From Gammaproteobacteria bacterium (GTDB lineage: Bacteria > Pseudomonadota > Gammaproteobacteria > Ga0077536), in assembly GCA_016209015.1 (NCBI GenBank), contig JACQWY010000047.1, positions 1 through 64,000 of the forward strand: a stretch of DNA of 64,000 nt. The letters are read 5' to 3'. Under the pieces are notes generated by a model. It did not search any database. It was not told the DNA's origin and saw only the letters and a program-made list of their open reading frames with translations. The position numbers and the translations under genes are program-made. Positions 22,998 to 62,852 of the stretch are shown here, piece after piece. The stretch's first letter is position 1. Every line of letters begins with the position of its first letter.

Positions 22998-24254
22998 ATG
23001 ATAGGAAACCCCAACTACCGCCGCCGCGCCTGCGTGGGCGTCAAGGTCGGCCCGATCACCATCGGCGGCGATCATCCGATCGTCGTGCAGTCGATGACGA
23101 ACACCGACACCGCGGACGTCACGTCGACCGTCAAACAGGTACAACAGCTCGCCGCCGCCGGTTCCGAGCTCGTGCGACTGACGGTGAATACCGAAGAGGC
23201 CGCGCAGGCCGTGCCGCGGATCCGCGAGCGGCTCGATGCGCTCGGCTGCCGCGTGCCGCTGATTGGAGACTTCCATTACAACGGGCACCTGCTGCTCTCG
23301 AAATACGAGGCCTGTGCGGAGGCGCTCGCGAAATACCGGATCAATCCGGGTAACGTCGGTTTCGGCCGCAAGAAAGACGCTCAGTTCGCGACGATGATCG
23401 AAGTCGCAGCCCGTCGCGACAAGCCCGTACGCATCGGCGTCAACTGGGGCAGCCTCGATCCGGCGCTCGTCGTCGAGATGATGGATGCGAACGCAAAGCT
23501 CGCGGAGCCGAAGGACGTAAACGCGGTGACACGCGAGGCGCTGATCCGGTCCGCGCTCGTCAGCGCCGCGAAGGCCGAAGAGCTCGGGCTTGCCCGGGAT
23601 CGCATCGTGCTGAGCTGCAAAGTCAGCGGCGTGCAGGATCTCATCACGGTCTACGCAGACCTCGCCGGCCGCTGCGATTACGCCCTGCACCTGGGCCTGA
23701 CCGAGGCCGGCATGGGATCGAAGGGCATCGTCGCGTCCGCCGCCGGCATGGGCTATCTGCTCCAGCATGGCATCGGCGACACGATCCGCGTCTCGCTCAC
23801 CCCCGAACCCGGCGGCGATCGCACGCGGGAGGTCGTAGTCGCTCAGGAGCTGCTGCAGACCATGGGTCTGCGCTCGTTCACTCCGCTTGTGACGGCCTGT
23901 CCGGGCTGCGGCCGCACCACGAGCACCGTCTTCCAGGAACTCGCGGAGAACATCCAGGCTTTCGTGCGCTCGCAGATGCCGATCTGGCGCGAGCACTATC
24001 CGGGCGTGGAGGACATGACGCTCGCGGTGATGGGCTGTGTCGTGAACGGTCCCGGCGAGAGCAAGCACGCGAACATCGGCATCAGCCTGCCGGGCACCGG
24101 CGAAGCGCCGTCTGCGCCCGTGTTCATCGATGGCGAAAAATTCACGACGCTGCGCGGGGAGAAAATCGCCGAGGAGTTCAAGCAGATCATGCTGGATTAC
24201 GTCGCGCGCCACTACGGCGGGCAGCACGCGACGGCCGACGCGGCACCGCACTGA
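22998..24254 (+). CDS. ispG: 4-hydroxy-3-methylbut-2-enyl diphosphate synthase IspG
   Basis: The 418 residues show GcpE/IspG motifs: [22 protein letters not shown], the TIM barrel, and the C-terminal [4Fe-4S] ligands in ACPGCGRT and [10 protein letters not shown]. It makes HMBPP in the MEP isoprenoid pathway. The MEP route is relevant to the RuBisCO-like/cupin operon at 60-62 kb, whose proposed product is the MEP-pathway precursor DXP. Confidence 0.97.
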
Positions 24255-55767: not shown

Positions 55768-58251
55768 TCAACGCCGCTCCGCCGCGCCCATCCGCAGCTC
55801 CGCGACGTAGCGCCGGCCTTCGCGATCGGTGAGCCAGCACCCGTCGGGGCCCGGCAGCATTTCGACGACGGAGATCGACGCCGCCGGCGACGCGGCGCGC
55901 ACGCCGTCGGCGAACTGCTCGGCATAGACGAGGCTGTCGAGATCGAGGAAGAACGGCTTGCCCTCGCCTTCGAGACGATAGAACGCGTGCCGCGGAATGC
56001 CGAGATCGCGCGCCCAGCGCCGCAGCCCGAGGTAGCGCGCGGCGCGATCGTGCAGGCGCACGAAGGGCAGCTCCGCGGCGCACACGCGCCAGGACTCGCG
56101 CTGCACGACGAGCCTGTCGATGCAGACGCGTGGCAGATGCGCATCGAGCCGGAACGGCTTGAACTCGCTCATGCCCAGGATGCGGACCTGCGGCCCGAGA
56201 AACTGCACGAGCGGCCAGCACCGGCCGTCGCGCGCGACGACGAGGGGGGCCGCGCCGTCGAGCGCGAGCGCGAGGTCGGCGATGCGCACCGGCGCGCCCG
56301 ACCCGGCCGGCGCTGCGTTCGCGCCGTGGAGCACCGGCACGTCGTGGGCGAGCGGCAACTGGTAGGCGGCGCGCTGCCCCTTGCCTTCGAGACCTGCGAC
56401 CGGCACGAGCTCGGGCACGTTCTGCACGGCGGCGACGGCGGCGAGGAGCTCGGCCGGCGCGGGACAGAATTTCGCGAACAGGCGCTGCGCCGTGAGATTC
56501 GTGCCCGGATGCACTTCGCCGAGTACGGCGAGCCAGTCCGGATCGTCGAACGAGCGCGCGGCGAACATGAGATCGGGCGAATGCCAGCGCGCGCCCGACC
56601 ACGACGCCTCGCGCCAGGCGAACCGCCCGGCAAGGCGCGGCAGGACGGCACCGCTCGCGAACGCGACGGCGCGCGCTGCAGGGTCGAACCCGAGTGCCTC
56701 GCGCCAGCGCGCCTGCAGATCCGCCGTGACCGCGGCCGCGAGCGCAGTCGCCTCGGCATGGGCCTCCGCGAGAGCCGCCCACAGCGCCGCCAGCGGGACG
56801 ATCGCGCCGCACTCGCTGCGCAGCGTCGCGCATCGGGCATTCGCGAAATCGAGATAGCGTACGAGCAGCGTATTCGAGAACCAGCGCGCGCTGTCGAGCA
56901 CGCAGGACAAGGCCGGCGCGAGCGCGGCGACGCGCGCCTCGTCGAGCACGAGCTCGACGTCGCGCACGGCGTCCGGATAGAGCGGCGTGCGGCCGGCGTA
57001 AGCCTTGCCGGCGTGACGGCGGGCCGCATCACCGGTGACCGCGACATACTCCGCATCGAACGCCGCGAGTGTCGCGGCCAGCGTCTCCGGCGTCGCCTGT
57101 GCGGCCGCGTCGCGAGCCCGTTCGAGCCGCGCGAGCAGACTCCGTGCGGGCGCACGGACCCCCTGCGGCAGCGCATCGAGCGCGGCGCGGAATGCCCGCT
57201 CCGGCTCCGGTTCGACGGCGACCGGCACCCGCCAGTCGATCACGCCGCTGGCCGCGAGCTCGTCGAGCAGGGCTTCGACGGTGGGCGCATCGGCACCGCG
57301 CGCGGGTTGACCGAATTGCGCGATGAGTGCGGCCGCCGGCGTGCGCCCGTCGCAGGCCGCGAGGAATTCGCTCTGCAGCGCATCGAGCGGCAGCTCCCCG
57401 TCCGGCAGCACGAGCCGGCCCGCCACGAGCGCTGCCTCCGCCGCGAGGCGCGGCGCGAGCGCGAGCCGGAACGGGCGCACGGCCGAGAGCCGGCGCGCGA
57501 GCGCCTGCAGCGTCCAGCATTCGAAGTAGGTACGCTCTTCGGCGATCACGGCCGGCCCGGGTTCGAGCCGCGCGCCCGGCCCGACGAGCGCGTATGCGAC
57601 CGGGCCGAAATGTCCGATGCTCTCGTTCTTCGCGAGATAGCGTTGCAGGTAGCGCGCCGCGACGCGGCGCAGCGGGCGGGTCGAGGCGGATCCGGCGAGC
57701 CAGGCGCCGAGTCCGTCCGACCAGAGATCGCGGTTCTGCCAGATTACCGCGGTGCGCAGCGCGGGATCCGCGAAGGCCGCGCGCAGGCGCTCGTCGATCG
57801 TCGCAGCGGCGACCTGTAGTGCCGCGGCGAGCGCCGCTGCGGCGGCCGCACGCCGCGCCTGGGCCTCGGCCAGCGCGGCACACGCTTCGCGCGCCGCAGG
57901 CTCGGCGACGAGCATTTCGGGGATCCGGCCGACGCGGAGCCGCTTCAGTCCGAGCTGCCAGGGACGGGGTTCGAGATCCGTCGCGATCCGCTGCATGCAG
58001 ATCGCGCGGAGCGATCGGCTGGCCGCCTCGCAGGACTCATCGGAAGCAGCGAAGTCGCGCCACGCCGCGGCGAGCCCGGCGTCGGCGAGCTCGTCGAGGC
58101 CGGCGACGGGGAAGCCCGCGGAGCGCAGGCAGCAGACGCGCGAGAGCACCCAGTCCGCGTCGAGTGCGAGCGGGCGCTCGAGCGCGGCGACGAGGGCGGT
58201 GCGATCGAACACGGCAGACGCGCTCAGCGCCGGACCGGGCCCGGTCCACAA
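55768..58251 (-). CDS. Orphan LanB-like lantibiotic dehydratase domain protein
   Basis: The 827-residue frame resembles the N-terminal (glutamylation) domain of class I lanthipeptide dehydratases. Signs are an opening WVLSRVCCLRSAGFP, NESIGHFGPV (about 210), WREASWSGARWHSPDLMFA and LGEVHPGTN. The late segment runs RRWARDLGIPRHAFYRLEGEGKPFFLDLDS near the C-terminus. No separate elimination domain, cyclase or precursor peptide was found nearby. It could be a tRNA-dependent amino-acid ligase on a protein substrate (inference). The frame starts with TTG at 58251, next to a terminator; GTG at 58212 is equally plausible. Neither has a good RBS. Confidence 0.75.
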   Translation of the reverse strand: MWTGPGPALSASAVFDRTALVAALERPLALDADWVLSRVCCLRSAGFPVAGLDELADAGLAAAWRDFAASDESCEAASRSLRAICMQRIATDLEPRPWQLGLKRLRVGRIPEMLVAEPAAREACAALAEAQARRAAAAAALAAALQVAAATIDERLRAAFADPALRTAVIWQNRDLWSDGLGAWLAGSASTRPLRRVAARYLQRYLAKNESIGHFGPVAYALVGPGARLEPGPAVIAEERTYFECWTLQALARRLSAVRPFRLALAPRLAAEAALVAGRLVLPDGELPLDALQSEFLAACDGRTPAAALIAQFGQPARGADAPTVEALLDELAASGVIDWRVPVAVEPEPERAFRAALDALPQGVRAPARSLLARLERARDAAAQATPETLAATLAAFDAEYVAVTGDAARRHAGKAYAGRTPLYPDAVRDVELVLDEARVAALAPALSCVLDSARWFSNTLLVRYLDFANARCATLRSECGAIVPLAALWAALAEAHAEATALAAAVTADLQARWREALGFDPAARAVAFASGAVLPRLAGRFAWREASWSGARWHSPDLMFAARSFDDPDWLAVLGEVHPGTNLTAQRLFAKFCPAPAELLAAVAAVQNVPELVPVAGLEGKGQRAAYQLPLAHDVPVLHGANAAPAGSGAPVRIADLALALDGAAPLVVARDGRCWPLVQFLGPQVRILGMSEFKPFRLDAHLPRVCIDRLVVQRESWRVCAAELPFVRLHDRAARYLGLRRWARDLGIPRHAFYRLEGEGKPFFLDLDSLVYAEQFADGVRAASPAASISVVEMLPGPDGCWLTDREGRRYVAELRMGAAERR

Positions 58252-58256
58252 ACGAA

Positions 58257-58280
58257 AACGGGATGGTCGCCCATCCCGTT
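58257..58280 (-). terminator. Intrinsic terminator after the PEP-CTERM gene
   Basis: On the - strand a perfect 10-bp stem AACGGGATGG/CCATCCCGTT closed by a GCGA tetraloop is followed by TTCGTTTG. It lies 38 bp beyond the PEP-CTERM stop and just before the LanB-like start, so the two genes are probably separate transcripts. Confidence 0.75.
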
Positions 58281-58317
58281 CGCGTCGCGAGCTGCCGGCA
58301 CGCGCCGGACCCGGGGT

Positions 58318-59145
58318 TCAGTCCGCTTGGCGGCGGCGCGCGCAGCGCAGCGCGGCGAGGCCGAGACCCAGCAGCGCGAGGCTGCCCGGCTCCGGCACCG
58401 GCTGGTTCGTGCGGGCCGCCTGCAGGATCGGGTTGTCGGCGACGGCCAGCGGGAAGTCCGGGTCGCCCGTGCGACGGGTCATGTCCGTCCACGACGCCTG
58501 GTACGGCGCGGCCGTTTCGCCGAACGGCGAGACCAAGCCGAAACCGTCACGGAAATCGTCCGGCCAAATCGAGTCGCCGCCGCCGCAGCTGAACTCCGAC
58601 GAGCCGCCTTCGCAGGCGCCGGTGTAGAAGTGCAGCACGTGGCTGACGGTATTGAACGGGTTGTTCGAGGCGCCGCCGTAGAGCGCGTCGAAGATGTCCT
58701 TCAGCGGATCCCCATCGGTCTGCCAGTCGGCAACGCCGTCCCAGCCGGTCGCGACATTCGCCTCACCGATCGTCTCGATGGCGTAGTTCCAGCCTTCGGG
58801 AACGATGACGTTCGTGATCTGCGAGGCATCGCTGCCGTCCGCCTGACCGTCGGTGCCCGTGCCGAAGTACGGCAGCTCCCAGTCGCGGAGGACTTCGATC
58901 ACCGGCGCTTCGCGATTGACGGAATTCGAGGTGTTGCACACCCGGAAGTCGTAAGTGAACGTGCCGTTACCGTTGTCCGTGACCGCCGAGGTGACGGCCG
59001 AGGTGTGCGAACCGCTCACGCCCGGGCAACTCGGCAGCGGATCGGTCGCCACGATCGCGTGCGCGACGCCCGAGAAGGCCGTCAGTCCCAGCGCCCCGAA
59101 GAGGGCCAACGCCGAGACACGATTGTGATTGTTGAAGTGCTTCAT
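58318..59145 (-). CDS. PEP-CTERM sorting-domain surface protein
   Basis: The 275 residues have a signal peptide (VSALALFGALGLTAFSGVAHA), an extracellular domain of about 210 residues with six Cys and repeated Asp/Gly/Trp, and the classic C-terminal signal QPVPEPGSLALLGLGLAALRCARRR. PEP is followed by a hydrophobic helix and a basic end. AGGAGG lies upstream of the ATG. It would be exported and processed by an exosortase, probably into an exopolysaccharide matrix. The domain itself I do not recognise. It has a sigma-54 promoter. Confidence 0.9.
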   Translation of the reverse strand: MKHFNNHNRVSALALFGALGLTAFSGVAHAIVATDPLPSCPGVSGSHTSAVTSAVTDNGNGTFTYDFRVCNTSNSVNREAPVIEVLRDWELPYFGTGTDGQADGSDASQITNVIVPEGWNYAIETIGEANVATGWDGVADWQTDGDPLKDIFDALYGGASNNPFNTVSHVLHFYTGACEGGSSEFSCGGGDSIWPDDFRDGFGLVSPFGETAAPYQASWTDMTRRTGDPDFPLAVADNPILQAARTNQPVPEPGSLALLGLGLAALRCARRRQAD

Positions 59146-59218
59146 CGAAATTTTCCTCCTGGAACTGACGGCTCTGGACAGGCGCTCCCCACCTTGTCAC
59201 GAGTGCTGCATGGCATTG

Positions 59219-59234
59219 AGCAACATCCGGGCCA
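59219..59234 (-). promoter_or_regulatory. Sigma-54 promoter of the PEP-CTERM gene
   Basis: The - strand reads TGGCCCGGATGTTGCT, matching TGGCACG-N4-TTGCW with one change (C for A). GG/GC spacing is exact. The start would be near 59207 with a leader of about 62 nt. PEP-CTERM genes are known to need RpoN and the PrsK/PrsR system in some beta- and gammaproteobacteria. Confidence 0.75.
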
Positions 59235-59300
59235 GGAAACCTAATCCCCGCATTTTCCAGGGGTTTGGGAGCGCGGAGGCGTCGAGCTCCGCAGCTCGTT

Positions 59301-59317
59301 GTAAAAATTACCGACAG
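59301..59317. promoter_or_regulatory. Candidate enhancer-binding (PrsR-like) box upstream of the PEP-CTERM promoter
   Basis: TGTAAAAATTACCGACA lies about 100 bp upstream of the predicted start, the usual place for a sigma-54 activator site. A related copy TGTAAAAAAACTGGACG is at 59399-59415. The link to PrsR rests on my memory of TGTAA...CCGACA-like motifs upstream of PEP-CTERM genes and needs checking. Confidence 0.5.
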
Positions 59318-59419
59318 GGGCCCGGCGGGACGAATGTGACGGAAGTCCGCGGGCTGGCGTAAGTGCTTGATGCTCGATTGCGAAGCGGTGCCGCGCGCTG
59401 TAAAAAAACTGGACGCGGC

Positions 59420-60220
59420 TCAGGAATGGCCGGGCAGCGCGATCGTCTCCGTCCAGGTCTTGCCTTTCGAATCCGAGACTTCGGCGGTCAGGTGCTTGTG
59501 AGGCGTCGCGCCGACGAAGAACCGGAAGCTCGGGTCCTCGCTGATCGCGATCCCGGTCTCGGCCGTCAGCAGCGGCGTGCCGTCGGCGCTGATCTTCACG
59601 GTCTTCACGTAATGCGCCGGACGCACGGCGTAGATCCGATAGTCCATCTGCATGCCGGTGATGTTCGGATGCTTGATCTGGAGCTGCGCGACGAGCCCGC
59701 CGTCCGCCTCGTCGGGCGGCGCGCCGAGCGTCTTCAACTGCATCGTGCCGAGGTGCGACATCGCGCGATCGTAGTCCGTCGCGAGCGGCGCGGCACAGCC
59801 GCCGGCGGCCTTCACGAAATTCGCGACCATGTGGTGCTCGCCGTTGTTCATGACCGCGACGGCGCGCACGTTCGTGTACTTGTCGATGCGCGCCCGCAGC
59901 GCGAGGTCGGCGCGCCCGACGGCCGGCGTGAACGTGAAGCGGCCGACGAGCGGTTCGGGATTGTTGTCGACGAAGAGGTAGATCGTCTCGATGTAGCGCT
60001 CCGGCGTCTGCGGGACGAGCGCCTTGATGCGGACCGGCGTCATCGCGGCGTCCTCGGCGCGATAGGGCGTCACGAGATCGATGACCTGCTTGTCTTCCGC
60101 GATCGTCTTGTCGGGGAAATAGTGCGGCTTCAGGAGCGTCGCCCAGACGTCGACCGGCGACTGCTCGGCGCGCACGGCGGTCATGGCGAAGGCGACGAGC
60201 AGGGTCAGGAGCATTTTCAC
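59420..60220 (-). CDS. SoxYZ-like sulfur carrier fusion protein
   Basis: The GTG at 60220 has AGGA 6 nt upstream; an ATG at 60214 is the alternative. The 266 residues have a signal peptide (KMLLTLLVAFAMTAVRA), a SoxY-like domain (about 25-150) ending in GGC with Cys142 as the likely carrier thiol, and a SoxZ-like domain (about 165-265). The fusion matches the quinoprotein dehydrogenase-associated SoxYZ-like family. It is periplasmic and probably holds a sulfur or C1-sulfur adduct. No quinoprotein gene is near; instead it follows a cupin and a RuBisCO-like gene. Confidence 0.85.
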   Translation of the reverse strand: MKMLLTLLVAFAMTAVRAEQSPVDVWATLLKPHYFPDKTIAEDKQVIDLVTPYRAEDAAMTPVRIKALVPQTPERYIETIYLFVDNNPEPLVGRFTFTPAVGRADLALRARIDKYTNVRAVAVMNNGEHHMVANFVKAAGGCAAPLATDYDRAMSHLGTMQLKTLGAPPDEADGGLVAQLQIKHPNITGMQMDYRIYAVRPAHYVKTVKISADGTPLLTAETGIAISEDPSFRFFVGATPHKHLTAEVSDSKGKTWTETIALPGHS

Positions 60221-60222
60221 GT

Positions 60223-60681
60223 TCAGTCCTCCGCGGCGTCGAGGAAGGCGGCGACCGCGGGCACCGTCGTGAGCGCGCACAGATCCTCCGCGCCCGGCAG
60301 CTCCGGCCGGTCGCGTTCGCGGTTCACCATGCAGAGGAAGCCGAGCGGTTCGGGGCCACCGGCGCGGAATTGATGCCAGGTGCGCGCGGGCACGGTCACG
60401 AGATCCTGGGGACCGACTTCGCGCACCGTCGTGCCGAGGAGACACCGGCCCGCGCCCCGCACGACGACGACGGCGTGCACGTGCTCGTGGCGTTCGAGCG
60501 TGGTGTGGCCGCCCGGTGCGACCTCGAAATAACGGAGCTGACAGCCGAGCTCGACCTCGTCGAACAGCACCTGCCGCGTGACGTTCAGAAACGGCGCCGA
60601 GCCGTCCTGCTTGTACTCGAGCACGGACACTCGATCCCAGCGGAACGGCGCGGTCTGGCGGCGCAGGAGGTCTTCTCTCAT
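60223..60681 (-). CDS. Cupin protein, candidate methylthioxylulose-5-phosphate sulfurylase-like
   Basis: The ATG at 60681 gives 152 residues with one cupin_2 barrel. Metal ligands are visible in GGHTTLERHEHVHA (H59, H65, H67, E63 or H69) and H103 in TWHQF. In Rhodospirillum rubrum a cupin encoded next to a RuBisCO-like protein releases methanethiol from 1-methylthioxylulose 5-phosphate to give DXP. The gene is 10 bp from a RuBisCO-like gene here, so the same role is plausible (inference from context and size, not proven). Confidence 0.8.
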   Translation of the reverse strand: MREDLLRRQTAPFRWDRVSVLEYKQDGSAPFLNVTRQVLFDEVELGCQLRYFEVAPGGHTTLERHEHVHAVVVVRGAGRCLLGTTVREVGPQDLVTVPARTWHQFRAGGPEPLGFLCMVNRERDRPELPGAEDLCALTTVPAVAAFLDAAED

Positions 60682-60691
60682 CACTCGATAC

Positions 60692-61795
60692 TCACGTGGC
60701 GGATGGGCCATGCGCCGCGACGGTGGCGACGAATTCGCGGCTGCGTTCGAACAGTTCGTCCCCGGCGGACAACAGCGCACCGCCGATGAGCAGCATGGTA
60801 TCGCGTCCGTAGAGCGCGAGCATCTCCGGGACGCGCGCGACGTTCATGCCGCCCGCCGGCACCGGCAGACAGGCCCGGAGGTGACCGTGCGGCGCGCGCG
60901 CCCCATCAGTCAGCTCGACGCAGAGCTCGCGGCTGTAGCTGAAGCGGCCGCCGTAGTTCGGGAAGATCGTCGCGTCCGCGCCGCACAGCCGGAACAGCCG
61001 CCCGCAGAGGAGCGGCGGATGGATGCGCGAGACGCCACCGAGCGCGGGATGCGCGATCACGGGAACCTCGATCGCCGCGACGAGCTCCGCGAACGTCGGC
61101 AGGCCCATCACCATCGGCGCGGCGAGCAGCGCGCCGACGCCCTCGTCGCGCGCGATCCGCACCTGCTCGGCGAGCTGTCGCGGCCCGCCCGAGAGGCTCG
61201 GTGCATAGACGGCGCGGCGCCCGGTTTCGCGATTCGCGGCGGCCACCGCACGCTGACAGGCCGCGACGCGCGCCGCGAACGGCGCATAGCGCTGGTTCGC
61301 GATGCCGTGATCGTCTTTGATGACGTCGAGCCCCGCGCGCGCGAACGTCCCGGCGAGCGCGGCGAGCTCGGAAGGCGGCAGGCCCTGAGGCTTCAGCGCC
61401 GTGCAGGTCAGCGCGCGGCCGTGTGCGTCGAGGCGCTCACGCAGGCCCGCGATGCCGAAGCGCGGTCCGGGGAACGCGCCGAGCAGCGCCGGCGGCAGCG
61501 CGACGTCGACGAGTTGGACGTCGTCCTGCAACGAGCAATTGCCGAAGAGCATGTTCATGAGCTGGCCGATCTCCGAGCCGGTCGTCTCGACCGCGAGCTC
61601 GAGCGCGACGCGAAAGCCGCCGGCGGGCAACGGCGCGACGTCGGCGACGCGCGCGACGATTTCCTCGCGCACGTAATCCGAGCGCACGGCGGCGAGCGGC
61701 ATCTCGATGCTCTGCTCGAGCGCGAGCGCCGCGGCGCGCGCCGCGACGTCGGCCGGCGAGGCCGCGAGGTGATAGAGGACAGTCAGGCAATCCAC
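60692..61795 (-). CDS. RuBisCO-like protein (form IV), candidate methylthioribulose-1-phosphate isomerase
   Basis: The GTG at 61795 gives 367 residues. RuBisCO large-subunit landmarks remain: TALKPQGL (K135), the carbamate-lysine region with K160 in IKDDHGIANQ, HPALGG, FPNYGGRFSY and PVPAGGM. The KDDE of true carboxylases is KDDH, and several substrate residues differ, so it should not fix CO2. Together with the cupin it recalls the R. rubrum 5-methylthioadenosine-isoprenoid shunt, where the RuBisCO-like enzyme isomerises 5-methylthioribulose 1-phosphate. No RBS is evident. Confidence 0.88.
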   Translation of the reverse strand: MDCLTVLYHLAASPADVAARAAALALEQSIEMPLAAVRSDYVREEIVARVADVAPLPAGGFRVALELAVETTGSEIGQLMNMLFGNCSLQDDVQLVDVALPPALLGAFPGPRFGIAGLRERLDAHGRALTCTALKPQGLPPSELAALAGTFARAGLDVIKDDHGIANQRYAPFAARVAACQRAVAAANRETGRRAVYAPSLSGGPRQLAEQVRIARDEGVGALLAAPMVMGLPTFAELVAAIEVPVIAHPALGGVSRIHPPLLCGRLFRLCGADATIFPNYGGRFSYSRELCVELTDGARAPHGHLRACLPVPAGGMNVARVPEMLALYGRDTMLLIGGALLSAGDELFERSREFVATVAAHGPSAT

Positions 61796-61932
61796 GGGTG
61801 CGTGCCGGTTCGAAGGGGAGCGACATGATAGCGGATCCGCGCTCCGGGGCCGTCGGCCGATGTCGGCCCAGAGGACGAGCGGTTATGATCCGGCGCAGCA
61901 CACCGTCGTGCCGCCGCCGGGGAGGGACGCTC

Positions 61933-62760
61933 GTGACCATCACCGTCAAACCGCTCGATGCGCCGCTCGGCGCCGAAGTGTTCGGCGTCGATCCCACGCG
62001 GCCGCTCACCGAGGCGGAGTTCGCGATCATCGAGAACGCGATGCTCGAGCACCTCGCGATCGTGATCTCCGATCTGCCCGAGAACCTCGACTGGCTGCTC
62101 GGCCTCGGCCGGCGCTGCGGGCCGCTCGTGCCGCACGTGCTGTCGCAATACCATCACCCCTGTACGAGCGACATCTCGATCATCGCCTCGAACATGGACA
62201 GCGCCGAATCACGGCGCACCGCGAAACCCGCGGGTGCTTTCTGGCATTCGGACCTCTCCTACACCGCGAAACCGTCGGACGCGATCTTCCTCTACTCGAC
62301 GATCATCCCGGACGACGGCGGCGAGACGGACGCGGCGAACATGTATCTGGCCTACGACACGCTGCCGGCCGCGACGAAGGCGCGCATCGCGGATCTGCGC
62401 GCCGTGCACCGCTACGGGTGGAACGGCGGCGGCGCGATCGTCGAGCTCACCCCCGAGCAGCGCGCGCGATATCCGGACGTCGTGCACCCGGTGGTGCGCG
62501 TCCACCCGCGCACGGGCCGCAAGTGTCTGTTTGTGAGTCCGGGTTACACGATGTGCATCGTCGGCATGCGGCAGGACGAGAGCGAGGGGCTTCTCGAGGA
62601 GCTCTTCGCGCACCAATTGCGCCCCGAGTTCAAGTACACCCACCGCTGGCAGGTGAACCAGCTCGTCGGCCTCGACAACCGCCCGACGATCCACCGCGCC
62701 GTCGCGGGCTACACGAAACCGCGACGCATGCTGCGCATGATCGTCAACGGCACGGAATGA
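61933..62760 (+). CDS. TauD/TfdA-family Fe(II)/2-oxoglutarate dioxygenase
   Basis: The GTG at 61933 with GGAGGG 6 nt upstream gives 275 residues. The Fe ligands are H-x-D in FWHSDLSY and the distal His in PTIHRAV; an Arg in YTKPRRMLR would bind 2-oxoglutarate. The family opens sulfonates such as taurine or ether-linked herbicides. It is divergent from the RuBisCO-like operon (137 bp), which may point to organosulfur substrates (inference). Confidence 0.92.
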   Translation: MTITVKPLDAPLGAEVFGVDPTRPLTEAEFAIIENAMLEHLAIVISDLPENLDWLLGLGRRCGPLVPHVLSQYHHPCTSDISIIASNMDSAESRRTAKPAGAFWHSDLSYTAKPSDAIFLYSTIIPDDGGETDAANMYLAYDTLPAATKARIADLRAVHRYGWNGGGAIVELTPEQRARYPDVVHPVVRVHPRTGRKCLFVSPGYTMCIVGMRQDESEGLLEELFAHQLRPEFKYTHRWQVNQLVGLDNRPTIHRAVAGYTKPRRMLRMIVNGTE

Positions 62761-62766
62761 CTTGCC

Positions 62767-62852
62767 CACAGGGGTCGGAGGGACTTTTCCCGATCTGCCG
62801 ACTTATGCACAGGGGTCGGAGGGACTTTTCGAAAAGTCCCTCCGACCCCTGT
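62767..62852. repeat. REP-like repeat: two direct copies and one inverted copy of a 23-bp unit
   Basis: CACAGGGGTCGGAGGGACTTTTC-type units lie at 62767-62789 and 62808-62830, and an inverted copy at 62831-62852. The last two abut and form a perfect palindrome of 22-bp arms without a loop. It sits between the dioxygenase and carbonic anhydrase genes and could also act as a terminator. No transposase is near. Confidence 0.85.

What the first reader, a model, noticed from the sequence alone, without database searches (positions are those of the whole stretch)
59420..61795. RuBisCO-like protein, cupin and SoxYZ-like carrier in one operon: a possible MTA-isoprenoid shunt variant
A form IV RuBisCO-like protein (KDDH in place of KDDE) and a single-domain cupin are 10 bp apart, as in the R. 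rubrum shunt that turns methylthioadenosine carbon into DXP with release of methanethiol. Here a periplasmic SoxYZ-type sulfur carrier is added 2 bp downstream, which is not part of the known shunt. That suggests the sulfur may be passed to a carrier protein. A TauD-type dioxygenase lies divergent, and ispG of the MEP pathway is also in the window.
Basis: partly seen in the sequence, partly recalled or inferred. Interest (0 to 1): 0.75.

Follow-up and report, generated by a model that had tools for sequence, protein, structure and literature searches.

The report
Known methionine-salvage gene pair, extra neighbour
Two neighbouring genes look like the known bacterial pathway that salvages sulfur and carbon from a methionine by-product; the sulfur-carrier gene next to them is very probably a bystander, because the related bacteria examined do not keep it there.

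Summary
The genes are as described: RuBisCO-like protein (RLP, 60692-61795, -), cupin (60223-60681, -, 10 bp on) and a secreted SoxY-SoxZ fusion (59420-60220, -, 2 bp on). The RLP groups with 3qfw and with cupin-linked RLPs, apart from MtnW enolases; KDDH is clade-wide (77 of 78 rows). The cupin's best solved relative is Rru_A2000, the R. rubrum shunt enzyme. mtnP, apt and mtnA sit together elsewhere in the genome, with O-acetylhomoserine sulfhydrylases and dxs. So RLP plus cupin is an ordinary MTA-isoprenoid shunt. SoxYZ is a TIGR04557 carrier, one of three in this genome. No other RLP locus has it (0 of 81); of 56 SoxYZ loci none has RLP or cupin within about 1.5 kb. One relative (G007) has SoxYZ about 2.1 kb from the shunt cupin, but with two opposite-strand genes between. 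The 2-bp operon is thus most likely a lineage-specific junction. SoxYZ has a signal peptide and the enzymes do not, so direct sulfur hand-over from the cupin is unlikely. A third gene behind the cupin is common (28 of 69 loci) and, where it recurs, can fit methionine salvage better.

The parts
60692..61795 (-). DeepYkr-type RuBisCO-like protein, predicted 5-methylthioribulose-1-phosphate 1,3-isomerase
   Evidence: PF00016; best PDB relative 3qfw, 362 bits over residues 5-363; tree; cupin directly behind it in 73 of 81 other RLP loci
60223..60681 (-). Single-domain cupin, predicted 1-methylthioxylulose-5-phosphate methylsulfurylase
   Evidence: Best PDB relative 3jzv = Rru_A2000, 175 bits, ungapped; E63, H65, H67, H69, H103 and C117 identical in all 74 rows including Rru_A2000
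59420..60220 (-). Secreted SoxY-SoxZ fusion carrier (TIGR04557), probably co-transcribed, probably not part of the shunt
   Evidence: TIGR04557 235 bits > 140; carrier Cys142 in GGC, invariant in 6 of 6; absent from all 81 other RLP loci
60228..60232 (-). GGAGG ribosome-binding-like site of the SoxYZ gene, inside the last codons of the cupin, 7 nt before the GTG
   Evidence: Junction sequence printed; position by counting
61933..62760 (+). Divergent TauD-family dioxygenase; neighbour only, not part of the proposed function
   Evidence: PF02668; no match in any of 81 other RLP loci
58318..59145 (-). PEP-CTERM protein downstream of SoxYZ; neighbour whose relative also lies by SoxYZ in G007
   Evidence: PF07589; 53% match in L148
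55768..58251 (-). LanB-like protein next in line; neighbour whose relative also lies there in G007
   Evidence: 44% match over 834 aa in L148; the G007 relative matches Lant_dehydr_N PF04738, the window copy itself matches nothing

Best explanation
RLP and cupin are the two distinguishing enzymes of the known MTA-isoprenoid shunt. MTA is split by MtnP, MtnA makes 5-methylthioribulose 1-phosphate, the RLP isomerises it to 1-methylthioxylulose 5-phosphate, and the cupin passes the methylthio group to glutathione and releases DXP; methanethiol then goes to methionine through O-acetylhomoserine sulfhydrylase. Shown here: the genes, their orthology and the upstream and downstream genes in the same genome. 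Inferred: the activities. The SoxYZ gene is a lineage-specific third gene that ended up 2 bp behind the cupin, probably through rearrangement of a neighbourhood in which it already lay close by. It is likely co-expressed but serves a separate periplasmic thiol-carrier role, as its family is thought to do beside quinoprotein dehydrogenases.
For: RLP: 3qfw 362 bits against 132 or less for all others; group with 3qfw and cupin-linked RLPs, 78 rows at 99/93, apart from 2oek MtnW and 4nas; MtnW models far below cut-off, 126 of 513.6 and 164 of 409. Meiothermus, named in PMC4958253 as having RLP and cupin in R. rubrum-like organisation (passages), falls in the same group with the cupin adjacent. Cupin: Rru_A2000. 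mtnP 295 bits, mtnA 452 bits, both over cut-off on C39, with apt between; two O-acetylhomoserine sulfhydrylases over cut-off. Third genes are lineage-specific: 28 of 69 loci have a same-strand gene within 60 bp; a Cys/Met PLP enzyme in the 7 Opitutaceae loci. SoxYZ: 0 of 81 RLP loci; RLP or cupin: 0 of 56 SoxYZ loci.
Against: Only one genome of the window's genus is held, so a genus-level conserved trio cannot be excluded. In G007 SoxYZ lies about 2.1 kb from the shunt cupin on the same strand, so the nearness is not wholly unique. The 2-bp spacing with a good ribosome-binding site looks like real translational coupling. No enzyme activity was tested, and the R. rubrum RLP sequence itself was not in the tree.
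Confidence: 0.8

Rival explanations
1. Shunt variant: the secreted SoxYZ accepts the methylthio group (from exported S-methylthio-glutathione or methanethiol) on its Cys142 and feeds periplasmic sulfur oxidation.
For: 2-bp gap with ribosome-binding site; carrier cysteine kept; separate SoxY- and SoxZ-like matches exist at C57; a second genome has SoxYZ near the cupin.
Against: 0 of 81 RLP loci and 0 of 56 SoxYZ loci share the arrangement; different compartments; G005, G008 and G013 (92-99% complete) have RLP and cupin but no SoxYZ match at E 1e-10.
Confidence: 0.06
2. The RLP is an MtnW-type enolase of the Bacillus-style methionine salvage pathway.
For: MtnW models are the best NCBIfam matches.
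Against: Scores far below cut-off; strongly supported separation from 2oek; KDDH instead of KDDE in 77 of 78 rows; cupin partner.
Confidence: 0.03
3. SoxYZ is not even co-transcribed: it has its own promoter and merely abuts the cupin.
For: The closest SoxYZ relatives in G001, G007, G016 and G017 have opposite-strand genes on both sides, so this gene normally needs its own promoter.
Against: 2-bp spacing, ribosome-binding-like site inside the cupin's end; no sigma-70-like promoter in 58200-62800, though that scan is weak and also found none before the RLP.
Confidence: 0.15

Closest known systems
MTA-isoprenoid shunt of Rhodospirillum rubrum (Rru_A1998, Rru_A2000) and Rhodopseudomonas palustris (RPA2169, RPA2170)
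   Same: RLP next to cupin; cupin closest to Rru_A2000; mtnP and mtnA elsewhere in the genome; O-acetylhomoserine sulfhydrylase present
   Different: A SoxYZ gene follows the cupin by 2 bp; the term 'sox' does not occur in PMC5893883
TIGR04557 quinoprotein dehydrogenase-associated SoxYZ-like carrier (for example PP_2677 of the Pseudomonas putida ped cluster)
   Same: Fused SoxY-SoxZ, exported, over the model's cut-off
   Different: The window copy is not beside a quinoprotein dehydrogenase; the C56 copy of the same genome is beside a PQQ-domain protein
Thiosulfate-oxidising SoxYZ
   Same: SoxY and SoxZ domains, GGC cysteine
   Different: 65 bits against the TIGR04488 cut-off of 125 and 50 against 76 for TIGR04490; GGCAAP rather than GGCGG
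MtnW (YkrW) enolase
   Same: RuBisCO-like fold family
   Different: Different clade and KDDE; far below model cut-offs

Membership tests
MTA-isoprenoid shunt | DeepYkr-clade RLP | tested here: met
   Tree of 82 rows. Anchors are 3qfw (that it is the R. palustris RLP1 is recalled, not from a call) and Meiothermus; Rru_A1998 itself was not available
MTA-isoprenoid shunt | Adjacent cupin orthologous to Rru_A2000 with its metal and cysteine residues | tested here: met
   that these residues are the metal and catalytic ones is recalled
MTA-isoprenoid shunt | MTA phosphorylase and methylthioribose-1-phosphate isomerase in the genome | tested here: met
MTA-isoprenoid shunt | O-acetylhomoserine sulfhydrylase in the genome | tested here: met
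   two matches over cut-off
MTA-isoprenoid shunt | Isomerase and methylsulfurylase activity | not testable with these tools
   Needs assay
MtnW enolase | Score over the TIGR03332 or NF007095 cut-off | tested here: not met
   126 of 513.6 and 164 of 409
TIGR04557 SoxYZ-like carrier | Score over the curated cut-off | tested here: met
   235.4 against 140
TIGR04557 SoxYZ-like carrier | Gene beside a quinoprotein dehydrogenase | tested here: not met
   Window neighbours are cupin and PEP-CTERM protein
Shunt variant with SoxYZ | SoxYZ directly linked to RLP and cupin in more than one genome | tested here: not met
   0 of 81 loci; G007 has it about 2.1 kb from the cupin with two opposite-strand genes between

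The most novel reading that the evidence does not exclude
In this lineage the shunt ends in the periplasm: methylthio-glutathione or methanethiol made by the RLP-cupin pair is exported and the methylthio group is loaded on the cysteine of the co-expressed SoxYZ carrier for oxidation, so that methionine-derived sulfur enters a Sox-type pathway.
Probability: 0.05. Interest if true: 0.65.

Novelty: new member of a known kind. Interest (0 to 1): 0.22.

Why it matters
It extends a known salvage route to another proteobacterium and shows that the eye-catching sulfur carrier is probably a local accident. The survey made on the way is more useful: recurrent third genes behind the cupin (Cys/Met PLP enzymes in Opitutaceae, a glutathione S-transferase in two alphaproteobacterial-sample genomes) are candidates for the steps that free methanethiol from its glutathione adduct and turn it into methionine; PMC5893883 describes the release step only as proposed.

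Tried and rejected
Considered and rejected: MtnW-type enolase (cut-offs, tree); the shunt replacing Dxs, because dxs is present at 908 bits; TauD as part of the system (0 of 81 loci); ispG in the window as a meaningful link, since it is 36 kb away. A first view that SoxYZ and the shunt are never near each other was corrected when a contig-end cupin fragment turned up in G007; a follow-up search found no RLP in G007, G012, G016, G017 and G890, so the RLP of G007 is missing or lies beyond the contig end. Searches in the paper library for RLP with SoxYZ (listing only, 11 papers that hold both terms somewhere) and for the SoxYZ-like carrier (listings) showed no title or abstract start on this trio; the papers themselves were not read except as cited. 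No structure was predicted. The promoter scan found nothing.

L095 and L096 carry the same RLP sequence. Eight of 81 have no cupin match: three are cut by the contig end (L108, L109, L188), five (L144-L147, L193) are a 37-43% identical sub-clade. 69 of 73 cupin loci have at least 800 bases beyond the cupin match. The 56 SoxYZ loci are those that searches returned as loci, without the window's; matches listed without a locus were not examined. For the RLP tree four short rows and one duplicate were dropped.

Full report
What is there. On the minus strand lie, in order of transcription, an RLP (60692-61795), a cupin (60223-60681) and a SoxY-SoxZ fusion (59420-60220), 10 bp and 2 bp apart. The cupin's last codons contain GGAGG 7 nt before the GTG of the SoxYZ gene, so the third gene is well placed for coupled translation. 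A TauD-family gene is divergent (61933-62760) and ispG is at 22998-24254.

The RLP. The best solved relative is 3qfw, 362 bits over nearly the whole length; the next is 132 bits. In a tree of 82 rows the window falls among RLPs of its own family and, with 3qfw, in a 78-row group (99/93) apart from MtnW 2oek and 4nas. Long branches make the place of the genome's own Photo-type RLP and form I RuBisCO unsure, but they are not needed for this conclusion. KDDH occurs in 77 of 78 RLP rows, the exception being L036 with KDDQ, and in 3qfw. MtnW models score far below their cut-offs. PMC5893883 (abstract and passages) reports that R. palustris RLP1, of the DeepYkr clade, makes 1-methylthioxylulose 5-phosphate and that this compound builds up when the neighbouring cupin is deleted; that 3qfw is this RLP1 is my recollection, and a paper search for 3QFW was not informative.

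The cupin. Its best solved relative is 3jzv, labelled Rru_A2000, ungapped over 140 residues; PMC4958253 (passages) gives Rru_A2000 as the shunt sulfurylase and names Meiothermus among other carriers of the pair. Six residues, E63, H65, H67, H69, H103 and C117, are identical in all 74 aligned cupins. A cupin match follows the RLP in 73 of 81 other loci; three of the remaining eight are cut by the contig end and five belong to a divergent sub-clade.

Rest of the pathway. mtnP and mtnA are over cut-off on contig C39 with adenine phosphoribosyltransferase between them. A second phosphorylase at C54 is over the methylthioinosine phosphorylase cut-off. Two O-acetylhomoserine sulfhydrylases and dxs are present, so the shunt is a salvage route and not the only source of DXP.

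The SoxYZ gene. It is a TIGR04557 carrier, 235 bits against 140, and not a thiosulfate-type SoxY (65 of 125). The genome holds three such genes: the window's, one at C54, and one at C56 beside a protein with PQQ and cytochrome c domains. PMC12997753 (passages) describes such carriers beside PQQ alcohol dehydrogenases. No SoxYZ match lies in any of the 81 other RLP loci (flanks of about 1.5 to 6 kb where the contig allows), and none of 56 SoxYZ loci has RLP or cupin in flanks of about 1.5 kb. In the order, RLP is in 18 of 36 genomes including the window's; four of those 18 have no SoxYZ match at E 1e-10 (G005, G008, G013, G021; completeness 99, 92, 96 and 62). Seven genomes have a full-length SoxYZ match but no RLP at E 1e-60 (G007, G016, G017, G025, G026, G027, G035).

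A result partly against my reading. The window's SoxYZ groups with those of G007, G001, G016, G017 and G890 (SH-aLRT 100). In G007 a SoxYZ 70% identical lies about 2.1 kb from a shunt cupin that is cut by the contig end, with a ThiS/MoaD-like gene and a kinase-like gene on the opposite strand between them. Relatives of the PEP-CTERM and LanB-like genes downstream of SoxYZ are also there. So the neighbourhood is older than the window's lineage while the operon is not seen elsewhere. G001 has both genes, on different contigs. A deletion that brought SoxYZ against the cupin would explain this; an insertion in G007 would too.

What third genes look like when they recur. A same-strand gene within 60 bp of the cupin is found in 28 of 69 loci with enough sequence (crude gene calling). 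All seven Opitutaceae loci have a Cys/Met PLP enzyme behind the cupin and a second one divergent upstream; 12 loci of Burkholderiales have an enoyl-CoA-hydratase-like gene there, 8 of them followed by a glucose/sorbosone dehydrogenase-like gene. SoxYZ shows no such recurrence, with the caveat that the window's genus has a single genome here.

Verdict. RLP and cupin: a new member of a known kind. SoxYZ: probably a co-expressed bystander. Direct hand-over is also unlikely because the carrier looks exported and the enzymes show no signal peptide (by eye).

Noticed in passing
L087, L091, L097, L099, L101, L103, L107: All 7 Opitutaceae RLP-cupin loci carry a Cys/Met-metabolism PLP enzyme directly behind the cupin and a second one divergent upstream: strong genomic support for methanethiol-to-methionine salvage.
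   Followed up: partly
L179, L182 (and weakly L094): A glutathione S-transferase gene follows the cupin on the same strand; a candidate for the enzyme that acts on S-methylthio-glutathione.
   Followed up: partly
L064, L068, L071, L075, L077, L079, L081, L082, L083, L089, L102, L110: Burkholderiales loci share an enoyl-CoA-hydratase-like gene behind the cupin, in 8 of 12 followed by a PQQ glucose/sorbosone dehydrogenase-like gene.
   Followed up: partly
L144-L147, L193: A 37-43% identical RLP sub-clade with KDDH but no recognisable cupin within about 1.5 kb; function may differ.
   Followed up: no
L148:88-9612 (G007): SoxYZ, ThiS/MoaD-like gene, kinase-like gene and a contig-end shunt cupin in one neighbourhood; an LLM monooxygenase gene is nearby, and relatives of it are also near the RLP-cupin pair in L021, L023, L027, L028, L031 and L032.
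   Followed up: partly
L049:7022-8314 and L050:7191-8684: The same genome carries a Photo-type RLP close to 2qyg (708 bits) and a form I-type RuBisCO large subunit (769 bits to NF003252).
   Followed up: no
62770-62850: Three exact copies of AGGGGTCGGAGGGACTTTT, two direct and one inverted (0 expected), near an IS200-like transposase gene at contig position 64260-65117 (Y1_Tnp): looks like a REP element with its transposase.
   Followed up: partly
55768-59145: LanB-like protein followed by a PEP-CTERM protein; relatives of both lie together in G007. Unexplained.
   Followed up: no
L073: In Meiothermus luteus the cupin match is split in two reading frames: broken gene or sequencing error.
   Followed up: no
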